From Paracidovorax cattleyae (GTDB lineage: Bacteria; Pseudomonadota; Gammaproteobacteria; Burkholderiales; Burkholderiaceae_C), in contig NZ_FNJL01000025.1 of assembly GCF_900104515.1 (NCBI RefSeq), positions 24,247 to 88,246 of the forward strand: a DNA stretch of 64,000 nucleotides. Reading direction: 5' to 3'. The notes beneath the pieces were generated by a model that worked only from the letters and a program-made list of their open reading frames with translations, had not been told where the DNA came from and did not search any database. Of the stretch, positions 55,965 to 64,000 are shown one piece after another. The position numbers and the translations under genes were made by a program. Positions within the stretch are counted from its first letter, which is position 1; each line of letters opens with the position of its first letter.

Positions 55965-56520
55965 TCAACCATCGAGCGCGAGCCTGCTGAGCAGGATACG
56001 CGCCTCAGCGAGCCAGACCCAGGCAGTGGAGATCGAGGTCTTGCGATCGTGGTGCATGACCATGCGGCGCCAGCGCTCATTCCAGCCATGTCCTGCCTTT
56101 GACTTTTTTGCCTGCGTCGTAGCCGCAGTCGCCGCCCTGCGGTGATGCGCGGTTGGACTGCGCATCGATGACGGCCGCACTCGGTTGGGCGGCGCCACCC
56201 ATGCGGGTTCGCCATTGTTGGCGCAGCCGGTCCTGCATCTGCTCGAAGGCGTCGACTTCCACCCATCGCATGAAGGCCTTGTAGACCGCCTGCCACGGCG
56301 CGAAGCTCGACGGCAGGAGCCGCCAGGAGCCGCCAGTGCGCAGCACGTAGCAGCAGGCGTCGACCAAGTGCCGACGCTCGTAGCAGGCTGGCGCACCGCG
56401 GCTGCCTCCGGGACGCTCGAAGAGGTCCGCGACCAGGCTCCATTCGGTATCGGTCAGATCGGTGCTGTACTGGCCTGTCTCACGCCGGTGCGCTGCGGTG
56501 TCGCCATGGCGCTTTGCCAC
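55965..56520 (-). pseudogene. IS5-family transposase, internally deleted
   Basis: The N-terminal part is recognisable (DLTDTEWSLVADLFERPG, HLVDACCYVLRTGGSWRLLP, WQAVYKAFMRWVEVDAFEQM, VIDAQSNRAS, GYDAGKKVKGR). After KKVKGR the reading frame shifts and jumps straight to the C-terminal end (ERWRRMVMHHDRKTSIST, AWVWLAEARILLSRLALDG). The middle with the second and third DDE residues is missing, so the enzyme is dead. The family member is probably an IS5-group element; terminal repeats could not be fixed. Confidence 0.75.
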
Positions 56521-56604
56521 GGCGACCGGGGCAACTGGCTTGACGGACTCACTCGGGAGTCCAGACGGCAGCAGGCCGCGAGGACTGACCAGGCGCTTTA
56601 TTGC

Positions 56605-56619
56605 GAATAGAAGTCATTC
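56605..56619 (+). promoter_or_regulatory. Possible Fur box upstream of the FecI-type sigma gene
   Basis: GAATAGAAGTCATTC is an imperfect inverted repeat with AT-rich arms 46 bp before the sigma gene start, where iron-regulated ECF genes usually carry a Fur site. The match to the Fur consensus is partial. Confidence 0.35.
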
Positions 56620-56665
56620 CTGTATACTTGGACTGGTAGAAACCCGAACCCTTCAACGTCTGCGC

Positions 56666-57214
56666 ATGGCTTCTCAGCAGTCCCAGGGCGTCGCGGCGTT
56701 GTACTGTTCGCATCATTCTTGGCTGCAATCATGGCTAGAGCGCAGGCTCGGGCATGCCGCTGATGCGGCAGATCTGGCCCAGGATGCTTTCATACGCCTC
56801 ATTCGCTCGCCACTCTCATTCGAGAATCCTGGCTCCGCTCGCTCATACCTGAGGAAGCTGGCCGGCGGCCTTTGTGTAGATCTTTGGCGTCGCCGCCAAA
56901 TCGAACAGGCATGGTTGGACACGCTGACATCCCTGCCCGAGGACCTCGTTCCTTCGGCAGAGCACCAGGCGATCGTGCTACAGACAATGGGAGAGATTGA
57001 CCGCATGCTGAACGGGATCTCCGCCAAGGCGGCTACCGCATTCGTGCTGGCGGTGGGATGCGAGATGACCGACAACGAGGTCGCGGAGCAGGTAGGAGTC
57101 TCGCCGCGAATGGTGAGAAAGTACGTTGCGGCCGCCATGGCTCATTGCATCGCCTTGGAGATCCGAGCCTCATCGTCGGCAGGCAACACATCTGACAAGC
57201 ATCCAGAACTGTGA
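56666..57214 (+). CDS. FecI-family ECF sigma factor
   Basis: 182 residues. Region 2 is YCSHHSWLQSWLERRLGHAA, ADLAQDAFIRLIRSP, and ARSYLRKLAGGLCVDLWRRR; region 4 is MLNGISAKAATAFVLAV, then NEVAEQVGVSPRMVRKYVAA. This is the FecI/FpvI iron-starvation type. The ATG at 56666 fits the family; upstream in-frame sequence runs into the transposase remnant. Its stop overlaps the GTG start of the anti-sigma gene (GTGA). It probably transcribes the receptor gene and the DUF3649-PepSY operon through the shared elements at 58235 and 60679. Confidence 0.9.
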   Translation: MASQQSQGVAALYCSHHSWLQSWLERRLGHAADAADLAQDAFIRLIRSPLSFENPGSARSYLRKLAGGLCVDLWRRRQIEQAWLDTLTSLPEDLVPSAEHQAIVLQTMGEIDRMLNGISAKAATAFVLAVGCEMTDNEVAEQVGVSPRMVRKYVAAAMAHCIALEIRASSSAGNTSDKHPEL

Positions 57215-58218
57215 AGCCACTCAACGGGTCTTTGGACACAGCTGGTGACCACCTGCCTGGCGAGCTGCCACACGAGGTGATTGAATCTGCTGCGCAGTGG
57301 TACGCAGAGCTCCGTTCCGGCAACGCCTCCGAGAAGCAGGAGCGCGACTTGGCTGCCTGGTTGGCCCAGAACCCATCCCATGGTGCCGCATGGAGCTATG
57401 TCGAGCGCATCAGTCAGCGGTTTGAGCCCATCCGCGGATCAGAATCGAAGCGCGAAATTGGCGAGTCCTATGCGAAGGCTTCCAAGAGGCAGTCCAGGCG
57501 GCGGTTCCTTGCGCTGCCTGCCATTGGCGCGGCTGTTTTTGGAGGGCTTCTATGGAAGCGCGAGGCTGTTCAGGGGCAGATTCTCGCGATGGCCGCGGAC
57601 GTTCGAACCCGGACCGGAGAGATTCGAGAGCTGCGGTTGGATGAGCACTCAGCACTCTGGCTCAATACCGCGACAGCTGCTAATTATGCACTGCGCTCCA
57701 GCGAAAGCCAGATTGAAATGGTGGCGGGCGAGATACTGGTGCATGCAGAGCCGGGCCACAGTCGCATGTTCTCTGTGGAGGCTCCTCACGTGCGGATGAC
57801 GGCGCGCGGCAGCCGATTTGGCGTCCTCTCTTCTGACGAAGGAAGCCTCATTTCCGTGTATCACGGAAGCGTTTCGCTCTCATTCGGCACAGAACTCGGA
57901 GAGCTGACGCTGAAGGCTGGCCAGCAACTGCGCGTCTTGGGCGATACCGTTGGATCGGTCGTTGCAGCGCATCCGGCTCGCGAAGCCTGGATCCACGGAA
58001 TGCTTGTTGCCCAGGACGACCGGTTCTCCGACGTAGTGGCAGACCTGCGCCGGTACAGGCGAGGCCACCTTGCGCTGTCGCCTGACGTGGCCGATCACCG
58101 GGTGGTCGGAACTTTCCCTCTCAACGATACGGACAAGGCCCTGGAGATGATGGCCTCTGTGTTGCCGATTGCGATCCACCAGCGGCTTCCCTGGTGGACC
58201 AGTATCGAAAAAGCTTGA
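57211..58218 (+). CDS. FecR-family anti-sigma/sigma regulator
   Basis: This 335-residue protein has an N-terminal DUF4880 segment (VIESAAQWYAELRSGNASEK, DLAAWLAQNPSHGAAWSYVE), then one membrane helix (RRRFLALPAIGAAVFGGLLW). A periplasmic FecR domain follows (VRTRTGEIRELRLDEHSALW, GEILVHAEPGHSRMFSVEAP, VYHGSVSLSF), ending in an STN-like region (LRRYRRGHLALSPDVAD, VGTFPLNDTDKALEMMASVL). It should pass the ligand-bound receptor signal to the sigma factor. It starts at a GTG overlapping the sigma stop. Confidence 0.9.
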   Translation: MKPLNGSLDTAGDHLPGELPHEVIESAAQWYAELRSGNASEKQERDLAAWLAQNPSHGAAWSYVERISQRFEPIRGSESKREIGESYAKASKRQSRRRFLALPAIGAAVFGGLLWKREAVQGQILAMAADVRTRTGEIRELRLDEHSALWLNTATAANYALRSSESQIEMVAGEILVHAEPGHSRMFSVEAPHVRMTARGSRFGVLSSDEGSLISVYHGSVSLSFGTELGELTLKAGQQLRVLGDTVGSVVAAHPAREAWIHGMLVAQDDRFSDVVADLRRYRRGHLALSPDVADHRVVGTFPLNDTDKALEMMASVLPIAIHQRLPWWTSIEKA

Positions 58219-58234
58219 GACGACCGGTCATGTG

Positions 58235-58265
58235 AGTTCCGCTTTTCTCCATCTCGTTCGATTAA
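58235..58265 (+). promoter_or_regulatory. Putative FecI-type promoter of the DUF3649-PepSY-DUF3325 operon
   Basis: AGTTCCGC (58235-58242), 11 bp, then TCGTTCGATTAA (58254-58265). The same two blocks at the same spacing occur before the receptor gene at 60679-60709. It lies 17 bp after the anti-sigma gene and 50 bp before the DUF3649 gene. Confidence 0.6.
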
Positions 58266-58314
58266 GGAGATGGAGAACTTGCGCCGCGCTTTCCCCGGGG
58301 GAAGTGCCAATCAC

Positions 58315-58641
58315 ATGAAAAACCCTCTCAACGACCTTCCTCTCATCAATCGGGTTAGCCCGTATCAGTGGTCAGTGCTGGCCCGCGTGTTTGCGGGAAC
58401 GATCGGCGCCTACCTTGCCTCGGCTCTTTCGGCCTATCTGTTGGCCATGGTTTACGTGGCCGCAGGCTCCTCAAGAGCAGATGCGGTGGCCGCTTCGACG
58501 CTCCTTGCGTTTCTCATTCAGGTCGTGGCCGTTGTCATGGTCTTCGCTTGCAGTTCAACGCTGAAGGCGGTCAGGAGCATCGCCATTCTTCTGGTCATCC
58601 TGGCCATTGCCGCCTGGATCAACGCGCCGATTCGACCATGA
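58315..58641 (+). CDS. DUF3649 family small membrane protein
   Basis: 108 residues with three predicted membrane helices: VFAGTIGAYLASALSAYLLA, AASTLLAFLIQVVAVVMVFA, and RSIAILLVILAIAAWI. The layout and place directly before a PepSY protein in an iron cassette are those of DUF3649 proteins. The ATG at 58315 is preferred (GGGGGAAG upstream). An ATG at 58270 would leave almost no leader if transcription starts at the promoter element. It overlaps the PepSY gene in ATGA. Confidence 0.8.
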   Translation: MKNPLNDLPLINRVSPYQWSVLARVFAGTIGAYLASALSAYLLAMVYVAAGSSRADAVAASTLLAFLIQVVAVVMVFACSSTLKAVRSIAILLVILAIAAWINAPIRP

Positions 58642-60311
58642 GAGCAGACGGAAAACCTGAAGGCCTCCGACAGTCCATGTCATGGCTTCATACCTGGAGT
58701 GGGCTGGTACTCGGTTGGCTGCTGTTTGCGATCTTTCTGACTGGTACCTTGAGCTACATCCTCGATGAAATCGACGTATGGATGCAGCCTGGGATGCATC
58801 AGTCCGTTCCGACTGCTGCGACGCCGCAACTGGCCGTCGACACTCTCAAGGAACTGGCACCGAATGCAAGTAGCTGGACGATCTCCCTTCCAACGCCGAG
58901 GCAGATCGCTCTTGGTGTTTCCTGGACCGATCCCGGCGCTGAAGCGGCATCCAGTCAGGTCGGACGTGGCCGCGGGCGGAACGCTCGTCTCATCGAGTTA
59001 GATGCATCTACAGGTGAGAAGCTGACCAGGCGCGAGACCGCTGGCGGACGATTCCTCTACCGCTTCCACTTCGAGCTGTACAACATGCCTCGAAATTGGA
59101 GTCGCTGGATCGTCGGCATCGCGACCATGTTCATGTTCGCTGCCATCGTGAGTGGTGTCATCACCCACAAGAAGATCTTCGTCGACTTCTTCACTTTCAG
59201 GCCAGGTAAGGGGCAGAGGTCGTGGCTCGATGCACACAACGTGACGGCCGTTCTTGCCCTGCCATTCCACATCATGATCACCTTCAGCGGCCTTCTGCTT
59301 CTGATGCTGACCATCATGCCCTGGGGTATTCAAAGCACCTATGGCGACGTGAAGACCTATTTCGCGGAAAGCCGTGGAGGACATGGTGCGGGGGGGGCTC
59401 CAGGCGGAGGCGGGGCGCGTGGTACCCGCCCGGCTGACACTGAGCCGCAGGGCTGGGTGGAGATGGCCCCTGTTGGTCCAATGATAGTGACTGCACATCG
59501 GCGCTGGGGTGGGCAGGATGTCGCGAGCATCACAGTTACTCGACCAGGAAAGTCGGGATCCACTGTCGAACTTCGTGAGGCTGGCGGCTCAAGTTTGCTC
59601 GATCGCGGCAGCAGCCGCAGTATGGTTCTGGACGCCGACACGGGCCGGGTTCTGAGCGAGAAGCGAGCAGATGCTCCGTCCGCTTGGGCTGCAACGGTGA
59701 ACGCCCTGACAACGCCGCATCTGGGCCGATTTGCCGGTCCGGCGTTGCGGTTACTGCTGTTCGTGAGCGGACTCATTGGAGCGGCGATGGTCGCGACAGG
59801 GATGGTGCTTTGGCTCGTGAAGCGGAGCCCGACCTATAAGGCGAAAACCCGACATGCAGGGCACAGGTGCGTTGAGATTCTCAACGTCGCTGCCATAAGC
59901 GGGCTACTCCTGGCGGTAGCGGCGTATTTCCTGGCGAGCCGATTCATTCCATCCGGCTTCTCCGAAAGAGCAGCCTGGGAGATCCGCTCCTTCTTCATCG
60001 TCTGGGTGTTGAGCCTCGCCCATGCAGCTCTGCGATCGCACAAAGCGGCCTGGATTGAGCAGCTGGCGCTCGCTGCTATCGCATTCGCGTCGCTGCCGCT
60101 GGTTAACGGTTGGACAGGAGGTGCGCCGTTGACATCTAGCGTGCGGAACGCGCAGTGGAGCCTTGTGATATTCGAGGTATCGATGCTTGTGTTGTCCGCA
60201 GCTTGCATCACGACCGTGTACTTCCTGACGCGGAGATCCAAGAAGGTGCCGACCAGCCCTAAGCGTCAGACAGCTCAGAACGGTGCGGAGCTTCTAGAGG
60301 TGAATAAATGA
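58638..60311 (+). CDS. PepSY-associated transmembrane protein (possible ferric-siderophore reductase)
   Basis: This 557-residue inner-membrane protein has about seven hydrophobic segments, starting LHTWSGLVLGWLLFAIFLTG and including SRWIVGIATMFMFAAIVSGV and ALRLLLFVSGLIGAAMVATG. Conserved membrane His (HTWSG, RFHFELYNMP, HNVTAVLALPFH) resemble haem ligands of PepSY_TM proteins, some of which reduce ferric siderophores (FoxB/PiuB-like). A Gly-rich loop (ESRGGHGAGGAPGGGGARGT) includes a run of eight G in the DNA. It overlaps its neighbours on both sides by 4 bp. Confidence 0.85.
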   Translation: MRADGKPEGLRQSMSWLHTWSGLVLGWLLFAIFLTGTLSYILDEIDVWMQPGMHQSVPTAATPQLAVDTLKELAPNASSWTISLPTPRQIALGVSWTDPGAEAASSQVGRGRGRNARLIELDASTGEKLTRRETAGGRFLYRFHFELYNMPRNWSRWIVGIATMFMFAAIVSGVITHKKIFVDFFTFRPGKGQRSWLDAHNVTAVLALPFHIMITFSGLLLLMLTIMPWGIQSTYGDVKTYFAESRGGHGAGGAPGGGGARGTRPADTEPQGWVEMAPVGPMIVTAHRRWGGQDVASITVTRPGKSGSTVELREAGGSSLLDRGSSRSMVLDADTGRVLSEKRADAPSAWAATVNALTTPHLGRFAGPALRLLLFVSGLIGAAMVATGMVLWLVKRSPTYKAKTRHAGHRCVEILNVAAISGLLLAVAAYFLASRFIPSGFSERAAWEIRSFFIVWVLSLAHAALRSHKAAWIEQLALAAIAFASLPLVNGWTGGAPLTSSVRNAQWSLVIFEVSMLVLSAACITTVYFLTRRSKKVPTSPKRQTAQNGAELLEVNK

Positions 60312-60637
60312 CTGTCTGGCTTGTGATTGCTGTGTCCTTCTGTGCCTTTGCATGCCTGGGTAGTGCAATGGAGAGGCACGTGGACGACGTCCTTCGTGGG
60401 GTGGGATCCCGCTGGTTGAGGCTCTTCCTGCGCTCATTTGGCGTCTTCCTGCTCACAGCAGCTCTGCTTCTTTGCACCAGGAGTGCTGGGACCTCAGTGG
60501 GGATAACCATCTGGCTCGGCGCACTCACCGTCGCGGCCTGCACGGTCGCGATCTTCATGACCTATGGAGCTAGATGGCTCCCATATGTAGCGCTCACTGC
60601 TATGGCAACCGCTGGCGGCCTCGTCTGGGCAAAGTGA
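60308..60637 (+). CDS. DUF3325 family small membrane protein
   Basis: This 109-residue protein has three to four membrane helices: TVWLVIAVSFCAFACLGSAM, FLRSFGVFLLTAALLLCT, GITIWLGALTVAACTVAIFM, and YVALTAMATAGGLVWAK. The size and place right after a PepSY gene fit DUF3325, a regular companion in siderophore-uptake clusters. It overlaps the PepSY gene in ATGA and is last in the operon. Confidence 0.8.
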   Translation: MTVWLVIAVSFCAFACLGSAMERHVDDVLRGVGSRWLRLFLRSFGVFLLTAALLLCTRSAGTSVGITIWLGALTVAACTVAIFMTYGARWLPYVALTAMATAGGLVWAK

Positions 60638-60678
60638 CATCAACAAATGCGTCGTTGCTCCATTTGCAGTTGCGAATC

Positions 60679-60709
60679 AGTTCCGCATTTCTTGAGGTCG
60701 TTCGATTAA
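60679..60709 (+). promoter_or_regulatory. Putative FecI-type promoter of the TonB receptor gene
   Basis: AGTTCCGC (60679-60686), 11 bp, then TCGTTCGATTAA (60698-60709), the same two blocks and spacing as at 58235-58265. It lies 122 bp before the receptor ATG, so the transcript has a long leader. Confidence 0.6.
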
Positions 60710-60831
60710 TACATGAAGGAGCGATGTGAAAAACCTGTGGCCTGGCTTGCAGGTTGCCTAAGCAGCACGCAAGGCTCCCTCATTTGAGTGAGATATCACT
60801 CCACAACCATCAAAATCCACTGGAGAGTTGC

Positions 60832-63492
60832 ATGCGCAGCGAGTATCTGCACCGTCGGGACGTGACCGGCGGATTCATTAAGCCATCTGTTCCACACAAC
60901 CGGGCTCCCATTGCCTTGGCCGCACACCTCCTAGTAGCGGGCGGCATTCTGGTTATGAGCGCAATGCCGGCAGATGCATCGGCCCAGGGGCGTCAAGATC
61001 GCCGAGGCTCGCGTGGCGATCACAACGTTGATGACCGCAAGGCCTACTCGATCAACGGAGGCGCACTCAGCACGGTGCTGACGCAATTTGGATCTTCTGC
61101 TGGGGTCTTCATCGTCAGCACATCTGATTTGACCGCGGGCAAGGTCAGTCCTGGGTTGAGGGGACGCTTCAGCGTGGCCGAGGCGATGGATGAGCTGCTC
61201 TCGGGCACCGGACTAGAGGCCGTTGAAGACAGTCCGCGCCAGTATCGTCTGCGCAGCATCGCAACTGTGACCGGCGCAACTGTGCCTGCGGCCGCCGCAG
61301 CAGCTGCCAGTCAGCTGTCTGACGCAAAGGTACTGCCGACGGTGACGGTTACTGCTGAAGAGGCTCTTCGCCAAGCGCCCGGCGTGTCCCTCATCACCGC
61401 GCAGGACATCGAGAAGCGCCCCCCGGTGAACGACATGTCTGAGCTCATCCGGACTCAACCAGGTGTGAACCTGACGGGCGCCTCCTCCTCGGGCTCCTAT
61501 GGCAACAACCGTCAGATCGACCTGCGCGGCATGGGGCCGGAGAACACCATGATCCTGATCGACGGTAAGCCCGTCATGTCTCGCAATGCGGTTCGCATGC
61601 AGCGCAACGGCGAACGCGATTCTCGGGGGGACTCCAACTGGGTGCCCGCCGATTCGATCGAAAGCGTTGAGGTTATTCGCGGCCCCGCAGCTGCTCGCTA
61701 TGGCTCTGGCGCTGCGGGCGGCGTGGTGAACATCATCACGAAGCGTCCCACGAAGGCATTGCAGGGCTCTGTCACGACATACTTTGATGCTCCCGAAGAC
61801 AGCCTGGAAGGCAGCACTCGCCGGCTGGGATTCAACCTTGCGGGCCCCGTCGCCGAAGGTCTCAGCTTTCGCGTGTACGGGAATGTGGCAAAGACGGACG
61901 GCGACAATGCGGAGTTGAATGCCGCAGCCTCGGGCATCGCAAACAACGGAACGACATTGCCTCCAGCGGGTCGAGAAGGTGTTCGCAATCGCGATCTGAA
62001 CGCCTTGCTGCGTTGGGATATCAATCCTGATCACACAGTGGAGTTAGAGGCAGGCATGAGTCGCCAAGGCAATATCTACGCTGGCGAGCGGCCGGTCTCA
62101 GCAAACGGGACGGCACTGGAGTCTACGCTTGCTCACGCTGGCGCTGAGACCAATATCATGCATCGCAACACGGCCTCGGTTACGCACCGCGGCAAGTGGG
62201 GCGACATCGGCACTTCGCGCCTAGTGTTCCAGTATGAAGGCACACGCCGCGAGAACTATCCGCTGGATCAGTTCGGCGCTGGTGGTGATATATCCAACAC
62301 CAACGAGATGATCCGCTCGGAACTGGGCAACTACTTCGTGAACGGAGAGCTCTACACCCCCTTGAAGATCGGAGGTCTAGAACACGTGCTCACCACAGGT
62401 CTCGAATGGAGGAAGGAGAAGCTCGACGATCCGAATGCGACATCAGGAACTTCAAGTGCGGGAACGGTCCTCGTGCCCGGGCTGCCAACAACGGGCACGC
62501 GCTCCGGCAAGATCGACGCGCAGAGCTTCGCCTTCTACCTCGAGGACAACGTCAGCGTCACGGATAAGCTCGTGCTTACTCCCGGCGTTCGATTCGATCA
62601 CCATGATCAGTTTGGAACCAACGGTAGCCCAAGCCTGAACACCACGTATGCCCTCACGCCGGAGATCAGCCTCAAGGGTGGCATCGCGCGTGCATTCAAA
62701 GCACCGAATCTATACCAGACGAATCCGAACTATCTGTTCTTCTCTAATGGCAACGCCTGTATGGCGGTGGATGGTGCTCGACCGAATGGCTGCTATATCC
62801 AAGGTAACCCAGACCTGAGACCAGAGACCAGCGTCAACAAGGAAATCGGGATTGCGTTCAATGGCCGTACTGGCGTTGATGCAGGCCTGACCTACTTCCA
62901 CAACGATTACAAGAACAAGATCCACGCTGACGTCTGGGACCAGACAGGTAGCGACATTCCTGGCGCGGGACGTGGGGCAGGATCCGGTGCGCTTTATCGT
63001 TGGGTCAATGCCCGCCGAGCGATCGTTAGAGGCTTTGAAGGCAATCTCACCATCCCTCTTCTGGGAGATCGTGGTGGTGACCTCAAGTTGCTGAACAACC
63101 TGACGTACATGCTGGAGAACAAGAACTCGGACACAGACCAGCCCCTGTCGATCATCCCAAAGTACACCATCAATAGCACCCTCGACTGGCGCGTCAACAG
63201 CGATATTTCCGCTCAGCTCACCGCGTCCTTCTATGGCACGCAGAAAGCCCGGACTCGCAGCTCAGGCTACGGTCTGCCTGTGACCGGAGATCAGGCGCAC
63301 AACGTATCTGCATATGCCATCTACGGCCTCGGCATCCAATACCACACAGCAAGGAACTACCGTGCTTCATTCGGCGTCAAGAATCTGTTCGACAAGCGAC
63401 TCTACCGGGGTAGCACGAGCGATGGAGCGGGCGCCAGCACGTACAACGAAGCAGGCCGTTCATACTACGTGACCTTGACGGCCTCGTTCTGA
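60832..63492 (+). CDS. TonB-dependent siderophore receptor with STN signalling domain (FepA-like)
   Basis: 886 residues. The signal region ends near ASAQG. An STN domain follows (KAYSINGGALSTVLTQFGSS, GLRGRFSVAEAMDELLSGTG), the element that contacts FecR-type proteins. Next come the TonB box region (TVTVTAEEALRQAPGVSL) and plug (DMSELIRTQPGVNLTGAS, QIDLRGMGPENTMILIDGKP, VEVIRGPAAARYGSGAAGGV). The 22-strand barrel ends YYVTLTASF. RNAVRMQRNGERDSRGDSNW in the plug is typical of FepA/BfeA/PfeA catecholate receptors. The ATG at 60832 has GGAGAG. With the sigma and anti-sigma it forms a surface-signalling system. Confidence 0.93.
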   Translation: MRSEYLHRRDVTGGFIKPSVPHNRAPIALAAHLLVAGGILVMSAMPADASAQGRQDRRGSRGDHNVDDRKAYSINGGALSTVLTQFGSSAGVFIVSTSDLTAGKVSPGLRGRFSVAEAMDELLSGTGLEAVEDSPRQYRLRSIATVTGATVPAAAAAAASQLSDAKVLPTVTVTAEEALRQAPGVSLITAQDIEKRPPVNDMSELIRTQPGVNLTGASSSGSYGNNRQIDLRGMGPENTMILIDGKPVMSRNAVRMQRNGERDSRGDSNWVPADSIESVEVIRGPAAARYGSGAAGGVVNIITKRPTKALQGSVTTYFDAPEDSLEGSTRRLGFNLAGPVAEGLSFRVYGNVAKTDGDNAELNAAASGIANNGTTLPPAGREGVRNRDLNALLRWDINPDHTVELEAGMSRQGNIYAGERPVSANGTALESTLAHAGAETNIMHRNTASVTHRGKWGDIGTSRLVFQYEGTRRENYPLDQFGAGGDISNTNEMIRSELGNYFVNGELYTPLKIGGLEHVLTTGLEWRKEKLDDPNATSGTSSAGTVLVPGLPTTGTRSGKIDAQSFAFYLEDNVSVTDKLVLTPGVRFDHHDQFGTNGSPSLNTTYALTPEISLKGGIARAFKAPNLYQTNPNYLFFSNGNACMAVDGARPNGCYIQGNPDLRPETSVNKEIGIAFNGRTGVDAGLTYFHNDYKNKIHADVWDQTGSDIPGAGRGAGSGALYRWVNARRAIVRGFEGNLTIPLLGDRGGDLKLLNNLTYMLENKNSDTDQPLSIIPKYTINSTLDWRVNSDISAQLTASFYGTQKARTRSSGYGLPVTGDQAHNVSAYAIYGLGIQYHTARNYRASFGVKNLFDKRLYRGSTSDGAGASTYNEAGRSYYVTLTASF

Positions 63493-63675
63493 GAGCGTAT
63501 AAGGACGCCCCGGTTTGCCAAGCCTTCAATTCGTGATGCCAGGAAGGTCAAGATTGCACGCGTATATCCGGACTTGTATGGCAGCACGTTGCCACGGTCC
63601 CTGATGGAATTCGCTAGCCAAGGTCCCATCGGCTAAGCGCACTCTAGGTGCTTTACTCTTATCGGACTGTCTTGG

Positions 63676-64000
63676 TGACCTGCCCCCTTCAGCCGTGCCA
63701 ATGTTGAGTTAGCGAGTCCAAGGGTTTGGAGATTACTTGATCTCCGGTTGTTGCACAGCATCGCCAGTGCGCTGGCGATGCTGTGCGGCGAAACTGGCCG
63801 GCGGTATGCGCCCCAGTGAGCTGTGCGGGCGTACTTCGTTGTAGTCCCGCCGCCATCGGGCAATCTCCTGCCTGGCCTGTGGCAGTGACTCGAACCACTG
63901 CTCATTGAGGCACTCATCCCTGAACTTGCCGTTGAAGCTCTCAATGTAGGCGTTCTGCGTCGGGCAGCCTGCGTCGTTGAGCAAGTGCCGAACGCCCCGG
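63676..64000 (-). mobile_element. IS3-family insertion sequence, one end only
   Basis: The leftmost part of an IS3-type element: the 3' part of its transposase gene plus a probable terminal sequence beginning TGACCTGCCCCC at about 63676. The other end lies beyond the window. Confidence 0.65.
63733..64000 (-). CDS. IS3-family transposase OrfB, C-terminal part (5' end outside window)
   Basis: The frame is open to the right edge. Visible is the end of the rve integrase core: RHLLNDAGCPTQNAYIESFN (with the catalytic Glu in AYIESFNGKF), RDECLNEQWFESLPQARQEI, and WRRDYNEVRPHSSLGRIPP, then a short tail and TAA. This is the typical IS3-group OrfB C-terminus. It appears intact as far as it can be seen. 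Confidence 0.9.
   Translation of the reverse strand, partial: RGVRHLLNDAGCPTQNAYIESFNGKFRDECLNEQWFESLPQARQEIARWRRDYNEVRPHSSLGRIPPASFAAQHRQRTGDAVQQPEIK

What the first reader, a model, noticed from the sequence alone, without database searches (positions are those of the whole stretch)
58235..60709. Two matching promoter elements define a likely sigma-factor regulon inside the island
AGTTCCGC - 11 bp - TCGTTCGATTAA occurs upstream of both the DUF3649-PepSY-DUF3325 operon (58235-58265) and the receptor gene (60679-60709) with identical spacing; the 11-bp spacer differs at several positions. Conservation of two boxes at fixed spacing in two intergenic regions 2.4 kb apart suggests the binding site of the ECF sigma encoded at 56666. 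FecI-type promoters usually carry CGT-type -10 boxes, which the TCGTTCGATTAA block contains.
Basis: partly seen in the sequence, partly recalled or inferred. Interest (0 to 1): 0.7.

Follow-up and report, generated by a model that had tools for sequence, protein, structure and literature searches.

The report
Twin switches for an iron-receptor island
The same two-part DNA signal stands before a small membrane-protein operon and before an iron-receptor gene, with no third close copy found in this genome; both copies are likely switches worked by the iron-sensing sigma factor encoded next door, and transcription is predicted to start between the two parts rather than after them.

Summary
In detail: AGTTCCGC-N11-TCGTTCGATTAA occurs exactly at 58235 and 60679, and at up to 3 mismatches nowhere else in the 5.6-Mb genome. 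A matrix made only from nine other loci ranks these sites first and second in the window. The motif follows the FecI-like sigma factor, not the receptor. It recurs after fecR, or before the receptor, in sigma relatives whose receptors are FauA/FhuE-, FhuA- or FepA-like. Of 100 receptor loci found with the window's FepA-type receptor, one has it, and that one (Nitrincola) has a sigma of the same clade. Two target promoters of this sigma factor are therefore very likely. The E. coli fecR-fecA gap holds GTCCTTTTTACCCTTCTCGTTCGACTCA. With the published Fur-box position (PMC9249621), the fecA start falls just before CTCG. The first box would then be the -10 element and the second an initially transcribed downstream element; mutations downstream of the fecA start are reported to reduce transcription strongly. 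As a system it is ordinary (FecI-FecR plus STN receptor); the conserved downstream box is the interesting part. Start sites are untested.

The parts
56666..57214 (+). FecI-like ECF sigma factor, 182 aa
   Evidence: Pfam Sigma70_r2 52.4 bits (cut-off 24) and Sigma70_r4_2 32.8 (25.7); NCBIfam FecI models hit but under their cut-offs (150.7 of 185; 150.1 of 260)
57211..58218 (+). FecR-like sigma regulator, 335 aa (GTG start)
   Evidence: Pfam FecR 66.4 bits (24) and DUF4880 48.3 (25); NCBIfam E. coli-type FecR model 199.4, under its cut-off 385
58235..58265 (+). Promoter 1: box A AGTTCCGC 58235-58242, T-tract 58243-58246, box B TCGTTCGATTAA 58254-58265
   Evidence: matrix from nine other loci scores it 36.7, first in the window
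58245..58252 (+). Predicted range of the transcript start of promoter 1 (by alignment with E. coli fecA)
   Evidence: inference
58245..58277 (.). Inverted repeat (14-base arms, 93%) across box B of promoter 1; meaning unknown
   Evidence: hairpin register not shared with other loci
58315..58641 (+). Small protein, 108 aa, first gene of the operon (the frame is open from ATG 58270); no Pfam family
58638..60311 (+). PepSY_TM membrane protein, 557 aa; possible siderophore reductase (inferred)
   Evidence: Pfam 221.6 bits (28.8); weak PDB match 7abw, E 5.5e-05
60308..60637 (+). DUF3325 protein, 109 aa
   Evidence: Pfam 73.7 bits (26.8)
60679..60709 (+). Promoter 2: box A AGTTCCGC 60679-60686, T-tract 60688-60690, box B TCGTTCGATTAA 60698-60709
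   Evidence: matrix score 24.7, second in the window, next best 12.2
60689..60696 (+). Predicted range of the transcript start of promoter 2
   Evidence: inference
60832..63492 (+). TonB-dependent receptor: STN signalling domain plus FepA-type plug and barrel, 886 aa
   Evidence: Pfam STN 36.4 bits (28.4), Plug, barrel; NCBIfam FepA family 922.5 bits (cut-off 493); best PDB sequence match PirA 5fp2

Best explanation
The two matching sites at 58235 and 60679 are likely the two target promoters of the FecI-like sigma factor encoded at 56666, each predicted to consist of a -10 element (AGTTCCG), a T-tract close to the predicted start, and an initially transcribed downstream box (TCGTTCGATTAA). 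Inferred sequence of events: iron shortage allows expression of the sigma-FecR pair. A ferric siderophore, probably of catecholate type, binds the STN-FepA receptor, whose signalling domain acts on FecR. FecR then frees or activates the sigma factor, and RNA polymerase carrying it starts at both sites. This raises the receptor itself and the membrane operon with the PepSY protein, a possible siderophore reductase, so that one sensor would drive two transcription units. Shown by the calls: the anatomy, the two-copy count in the genome at up to 3 mismatches, the co-occurrence with the sigma clade, and the match to the E. coli fecA promoter region. Inferred: start sites, inducer, direction of regulation, and the roles of the operon proteins.
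For: Two copies only in the genome. A matrix from nine other loci ranks the two sites 1st and 2nd in 64 kb on both strands, 36.7 and 24.7 against 12.2. In sigma relatives the motif lies after fecR in 9 of 17 and before the receptor where gene order differs: G013, G522, Nitrincola. 14 of 16 motif-positive sigmas, the window included, fall in one supported clade of 18. The motif precedes receptors of three barrel types whose non-FepA bodies are 17-22% identical to the window's, and is found in 1 of 100 receptor loci retrieved with the window's receptor, the one with a sigma of the clade. STN-FepA receptors beside sigmas of another clade (L261, L262) lack it. The general matrix of this family ranks the E. 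coli fecR-fecA gap first of 8,978 sense positions (16.4, next 11.0). The published Fur-box position puts the fecA start just before CTCGTTCG, and mutations downstream of the start are reported to reduce fecA transcription strongly (PMC9249621).
Against: No transcript data. G015 has a sigma nearly identical to G013's but no site at up to 2 mismatches of the relaxed pattern. 8 of the 17 loci lack a close match after fecR: one has its site elsewhere (G013), one has it upstream (G522), one has a 1-base-shorter variant (G658), two have weak variants (G359, G263), and three have none found (G015, G219, G190). One motif-positive sigma (L138) lies far outside the clade. Window site 1 has no A/T-rich stretch at the -35 distance. 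The E. coli start was placed by arithmetic from a review, with three upstream Fur-box alignments of 11 or 12 of 19; the original promoter paper is not held. No Fur box stands out before the sigma gene (10 of 19, a level reached at 182 places of the window).
Confidence: 0.72

Rival explanations
1. One reading: both sites are promoters of this sigma factor, with AGTTCCGC as the -35 box and TCGTTCGATTAA as a CGT-type -10 box; transcription starts just after box B.
For: Same co-occurrence evidence as above. Box B is the most strongly conserved block of the family profile (T 0.92, G 0.92, G 0.97), as a -10 might be, and a further RTGAGA-like stretch follows it at 12 of 19 sites.
Against: In E. coli the three upstream Fur-box placements put the start 1-8 bases before CTCG, so CTCGTTCG would be transcribed. 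The A/T-rich stretch upstream of GTTCC in the family profile is then left without a role. Conservation of box B in that profile is partly by construction.
Confidence: 0.18
2. The boxes are the operator of a separate DNA-binding regulator (GTTCCG and GTTCGA form a direct repeat 20 bases apart), not sigma-contact elements.
For: Direct-repeat look and fixed spacing.
Against: The motif follows the sigma clade and not any other gene looked at, and a related motif follows fecR in 59 of 87 FecI-FecR loci at a score of 10 or more and in E. coli, where the polymerase with FecI alone is reported to transcribe the fecA promoter (PMC9249621).
Confidence: 0.04
3. Box B is an RNA leader element (hairpin or protein-binding site) rather than a promoter element.
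For: Box B is predicted to be transcribed. Strong folds at window site 1 and at G013 (z -2.5 and -3.9 with block shuffles). Over 59 sites folding is slightly better than in control stretches further downstream (Mann-Whitney p 0.048).
Against: Over the same 59 sites the mean z is only -0.34 (median -0.06, Wilcoxon p 0.087), and 24% against 19% of controls lie under -1. The hairpins at window site 1 and G013 are in different registers. Sequence, not pairing, is conserved.
Confidence: 0.05

Closest known systems
E. coli FecI-FecR-FecA and the fecA promoter
   Same: FecI-like sigma, FecR and STN receptor encoded together; the gap after fecR holds GTCC, a T-tract and CTCGTTCGACTCA
   Different: Here there are two sites, the second before a receptor placed behind an operon; FecI of E. 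coli is described as controlling a single promoter (PMC9249621; PMC5493296). The receptor barrel is FepA-type, and there is no clear Fur box
FepA/PfeA/PirA catecholate siderophore receptors
   Same: Plug and barrel over full length: NCBIfam FepA family 922.5 bits, PDB PirA and PfeA-type matches
   Different: Carries an N-terminal STN signalling domain; among the 120 best-listed relatives (the window's own included) carry PF07660
PvdS-type iron-starvation box of Pseudomonas (TAAAT-N16-17-CGT, recalled, from no call)
   Same: Promoter of a FecI-type sigma with elements at fixed spacing
   Different: Different sequence; in the family here the conserved CTCG box is predicted to lie after the start site
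PepSY siderophore reductase FoxB (that 7abw is FoxB is recalled)
   Same: Only PDB match of the 557-aa PepSY_TM protein, residues 13-171, E 5.5e-05
   Different: Weak, partial match; reductase role untested

Membership tests
FecI-FecR-FecA cell-surface signalling system | FecI-like ECF sigma gene next to a FecR gene | tested here: met
   Pfam hits over cut-off; FecI and FecR NCBIfam models hit under their cut-offs
FecI-FecR-FecA cell-surface signalling system | Receptor with an N-terminal STN signalling domain | tested here: met
   PF07660 36.4 bits, cut-off 28.4
FecI-FecR-FecA cell-surface signalling system | A single sigma-dependent promoter, before the receptor gene (described for E. coli FecI) | tested here: not met
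   Two sites in the genome; this trait is that of the E. coli type system and does not define the wider family
FecI-FecR-FecA cell-surface signalling system | Fur control of the sigma-FecR unit | tested here: inconclusive
   Best match 10 of 19 to a recalled Fur consensus, not above background
FecI-FecR-FecA cell-surface signalling system | Induction by the ferric ligand through receptor and FecR | not testable with these tools
   Needs expression assays
FecI-type promoter | GTCC/GTTCC, T-tract and CTCG box as in the fecA promoter region | tested here: met
FecI-type promoter | A/T-rich -35 element upstream of GTCC/GTTCC | tested here: inconclusive
   Present in the 61-site profile; absent at site 1 and weak (CATTTG) at site 2
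FecI-type promoter | Transcript start at the expected place, dependent on the sigma factor | not testable with these tools
   Needs start-site mapping in wild type and sigma deletion
FepA-family siderophore receptor | FepA-type plug and barrel over full length | tested here: met
   922.5 bits against a cut-off of 493, residues 154-886

The most novel reading that the evidence does not exclude
FecI-type promoters of beta- and gamma-proteobacteria carry a sequence-specific initially transcribed box (CTCGnnnG), more conserved than their -10 or -35, that the sigma-FecR-polymerase complex must read to open the promoter; clade-specific versions of this box (TCGTTCGATTAA here, CTCGTGC[AG]TCAA beside STN-FepA receptors of another sigma clade, CTGGCCCGTCAA at a second FecI locus of the same genome) keep parallel iron-signalling systems in one cell apart.
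Probability: 0.35. Interest if true: 0.7.

Novelty: new member of a known kind. Interest (0 to 1): 0.48.

Why it matters
It turns a guess from raw sequence into a testable regulon: one surface sensor, two promoters. It also offers a concrete sequence for an open question, why fecA transcription depends on DNA downstream of its start (PMC9249621), and a simple rule for genomes with many FecI systems: the promoter box goes with the sigma factor while receptors are exchanged.

Tried and rejected
Dispersed repeat: rejected, two copies only. Chance: rejected. Motif carried by the receptor family: rejected. RNA hairpin conserved across the family: not supported. Fur boxes: none stands out. A sigma-70-like TTGCGA-N16-TATACT lies at 56601-56628 before the sigma gene, but one such site is what shuffles give (mean 1.3). 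The search for related loci with FecR found no relative. Correlating promoter score with identity in sigma region 2 or region 4 gave weak, similar values (Spearman 0.31 and 0.33), so it does not tell which domain reads which box. STN identity (0.33-0.45 to all relatives compared) does not tell the receptor's origin.

Weak controls: the reverse-complement run is no control, since it sees the same motif; the three shuffled sets there, and the shuffles, were shuffles of two-base blocks. The mismatch scan (0 of 61 loci at up to 5 mismatches) missed the Nitrincola site that the matrix later found. The extended-element patterns were written after seeing the sites.

Mistakes: the pattern had one N too few and so tested a spacing one base shorter; of its 10 places, two lie just behind a sigma homologue (G187, G658). 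The corrected, slightly relaxed pattern gave 29 places in 19 genomes against 21 for the backwards control at up to 2 mismatches; 13 of the 29 have 0 or 1 mismatch, and 12 of these 13 are FecI-linked (all but G775:3404543).

Rows dropped: of 92 sigma places, those without a FecR match of 40 bits and duplicates were left out, giving 87; 28 of the 87 scored under 10 and were left out of the profile. L180 was replaced by the longer L265 in the tree. For the labels, G013 was scored before its distant receptor and Nitrincola and G522 before their receptors, all others after fecR. L044 was not scored for lack of a FecR match in place. In one search a Fur-like match of 11 of 19 near the fecA start codon was set aside as downstream of the promoter, and the third upstream placement was reckoned by arithmetic, not printed. 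Of the 61 loci, L111 and L112 are weak receptor matches; overlap of species between searches was not checked.

Full report
Observation. AGTTCCGC-N11-TCGTTCGATTAA is present exactly at 58235-58265 and 60679-60709. 100 shuffles of the window gave no match, and the 5.6-Mb genome has only these two at up to three mismatches. The first lies 16 bases after the fecR stop (58218), the second 41 bases after the DUF3325 stop (60637) and 122 bases before the receptor ATG (60832). The spacers share TTTCT, so the real motif has three blocks: RGTTCCG, a T-tract and CTCRTTSGATTnA (12-site table).

Surroundings. 56666-57214 is a FecI-like ECF sigma factor and 57211-58218 a FecR. 58638-60311 is a PepSY_TM protein and 60308-60637 a DUF3325 protein. 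58315-58641 has no Pfam family, so the name DUF3649 is not confirmed. The receptor combines an STN signalling domain with a FepA/PirA-type plug and barrel. The stretch 56600-63500 has 59% G+C against 68% in the first 55 kb of the window. By eye the ORFs at 56077-56520 and 63733-63984 look like transposase pieces (not scanned against a library).

The motif follows the sigma factor. Sigma relatives were sought in 399 genomes of the family (18 with a match at E up to 1e-40, the own genome included) and 399 of the order (11, own included). In nine of 17 relatives with at least 49% sigma identity, the 420 bases after fecR hold a match at up to 6 of 20 mismatches, against 6 of 669 control segments from the same loci. 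A matrix made from nine sites of other loci ranks the two window sites first and second on both strands, 36.7 and 24.7, next 12.2. Scored leave-one-out with a threshold of 14, 16 of 91 sigma loci are positive. On the sigma tree they need 7 changes against a shuffled mean of 15.0 (0 of 500 as low), and 14 of the 16 lie in one supported clade of 18 that includes the window. In three relatives the motif is not directly behind fecR: G013 (18.7 kb away, before a receptor followed by PepSY and DUF3325 genes), G522 (receptor before the sigma gene) and Nitrincola (receptor convergent to fecIR). In each it stands before the receptor.

The motif does not follow the receptor. Where it occurs, the four receptors typed with NCBIfam are FauA/FhuE-like (L171, L175), FhuA-like (L043) or FepA-like (L102); the non-FepA bodies compared are 17-22% identical to the window's. 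Conversely, 100 loci retrieved with the window's receptor (61 and 39; 1.17 Mb; the 39 hold about 1.5 kb on each side) contain one matrix hit above 18, at Nitrincola lacisaponensis, 41 bases before the receptor ATG; its sigma factor falls in the clade. Two STN-FepA receptors next to sigmas of another clade (L261, L262; 35% and 33% identity) lack the motif; by eye their gaps share a different box, CTCGTGC[AG]TCAA. Receptor and sigma lineages thus appear to have been recombined, and the box went with the sigma factor.

What the boxes are. A de novo search of 87 unique post-fecR regions gives a T-tract followed by CTCGnnnGgC (log-likelihood 378 against 85-96 in three shuffled sets). Aligning the 59 of 87 loci that score 10 or more, plus window site 2 and E. 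coli, shows two further signals outside the searched motif: T/G-T-n-C-C just before the T-tract, and an A/T-rich stretch (69-80% A+T at positions -21 to -16 of the profile, box A lying at about -4 to 0). The same matrix ranks the E. coli K-12 fecR-fecA gap first of 8,978 sense positions of the fec region (16.4, next 11.0): GATTGTCCTTTTTACCCTTCTCGTTCGACTCA. The review PMC9249621 (section 20 read in full) places the Fur consensus at -36 to -17 of fecA and reports that mutations downstream of the start strongly reduce transcription, that -10 mutations strongly reduce it, and that -35 mutations matter much less. The three upstream placements of a Fur box in the gap (12, 11 and 11 of 19) put +1 one to eight bases before CTCGTTCG (the third by arithmetic). 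GTCC/GTTCC is then the -10 region and CTCGTTCG the downstream element. PMC6180224 (passages) speaks of AT-rich -35/-10 motifs for groups ECF05 to ECF10, which fits the A/T stretch. Conservation inside the searched motif is partly by construction; that of GTTCC and of the A/T stretch is not.

Mechanism, with status. Shown here: anatomy, copy number, co-occurrence with the sigma clade, similarity to the fecA promoter region. Taken from PMC9249621 for the Fec system (passages and section 20): the signalling domain acts on FecR, FecR is needed for FecI activity, and FecI polymerase reads the fecA promoter. Inferred: that this sigma factor reads both sites, that the inducer is a ferric catecholate, and that the PepSY protein reduces the imported complex (its only PDB match is 7abw, E 5.5e-05; that 7abw is FoxB is recalled). 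In relatives L171 and L172 the PepSY and DUF3325-like genes follow the receptor behind a single motif. In the window the receptor lies behind the operon and has its own copy, so both units are predicted to stay under one sensor.

Against. No expression data exist here. G015 carries a sigma factor nearly identical to that of G013 without a detectable site. Eight of 17 relatives lack a close match directly after fecR. Site 1 has no A/T stretch at the -35 distance. The RTGAGA-like stretch after box B (12 of 19 sites against 40 of 5,700 random places) was defined after inspection. The plain pattern is not enriched across 200 family genomes at up to three mismatches (8 places outside the own genome, 11 control places).

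Literature. Ten searches listed no paper that, by title or abstract start, describes such a consensus. PMC9249621, PMC6180224, PMC4362757, PMC3597554, PMC12772443, PMC10253897, PMC5493296, PMC3817407 and PMC12548402 were read in passages only, apart from section 20 of the first. The key promoter study (Enz 2003) is not held, so the downstream box may be partly described there.

Verdict. A real, sigma-linked promoter pair in an otherwise ordinary FecI-FecR system. The naming of the boxes should be revised, and the conserved downstream box deserves a direct test.

Noticed in passing
window 58245-58277: Inverted repeat TTCTCCATCTCGTT/AAGGAGATGGAGAA (93%) spans box B of promoter 1; G013 has a longer one in another register.
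   Followed up: partly
window 60636-60699: 16-base inverted repeat (88%) between the DUF3325 stop and promoter 2; could form a hairpin in read-through RNA.
   Followed up: no
L141 (G000:C59:159500-162800): A second FecI-FecR locus of the same genome (42% sigma identity) has GGTTCCGGTTTT, like box A here, but a different box B, CTGGCCCGTCAA: box B may keep the two systems apart.
   Followed up: partly
L152 (G000:C43:16000-20500): A third FecI-like gene of the own genome matches in two pieces with a stop inside and looks broken.
   Followed up: no
L261 and L262, gap between fecR and receptor: STN-FepA receptors beside another sigma clade share, by eye, TTGTAAC and CTCGTGC[AG]TCAA in this gap: a different promoter version.
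   Followed up: partly
L042 and L043 (G013:C7:262000-300000): Five FecI-like sigma genes lie within about 28 kb, with the target site of one of them apparently 18.7 kb from its gene.
   Followed up: partly
window 56077-56520 and 63733-63984: ORFs that by eye look like transposase pieces flank the low-G+C stretch (59% against 68%); consistent with an acquired island.
   Followed up: no
G015 (L041): Sigma factor nearly identical to that of G013, but no site found in the genome at up to 2 mismatches of the relaxed pattern.
   Followed up: partly
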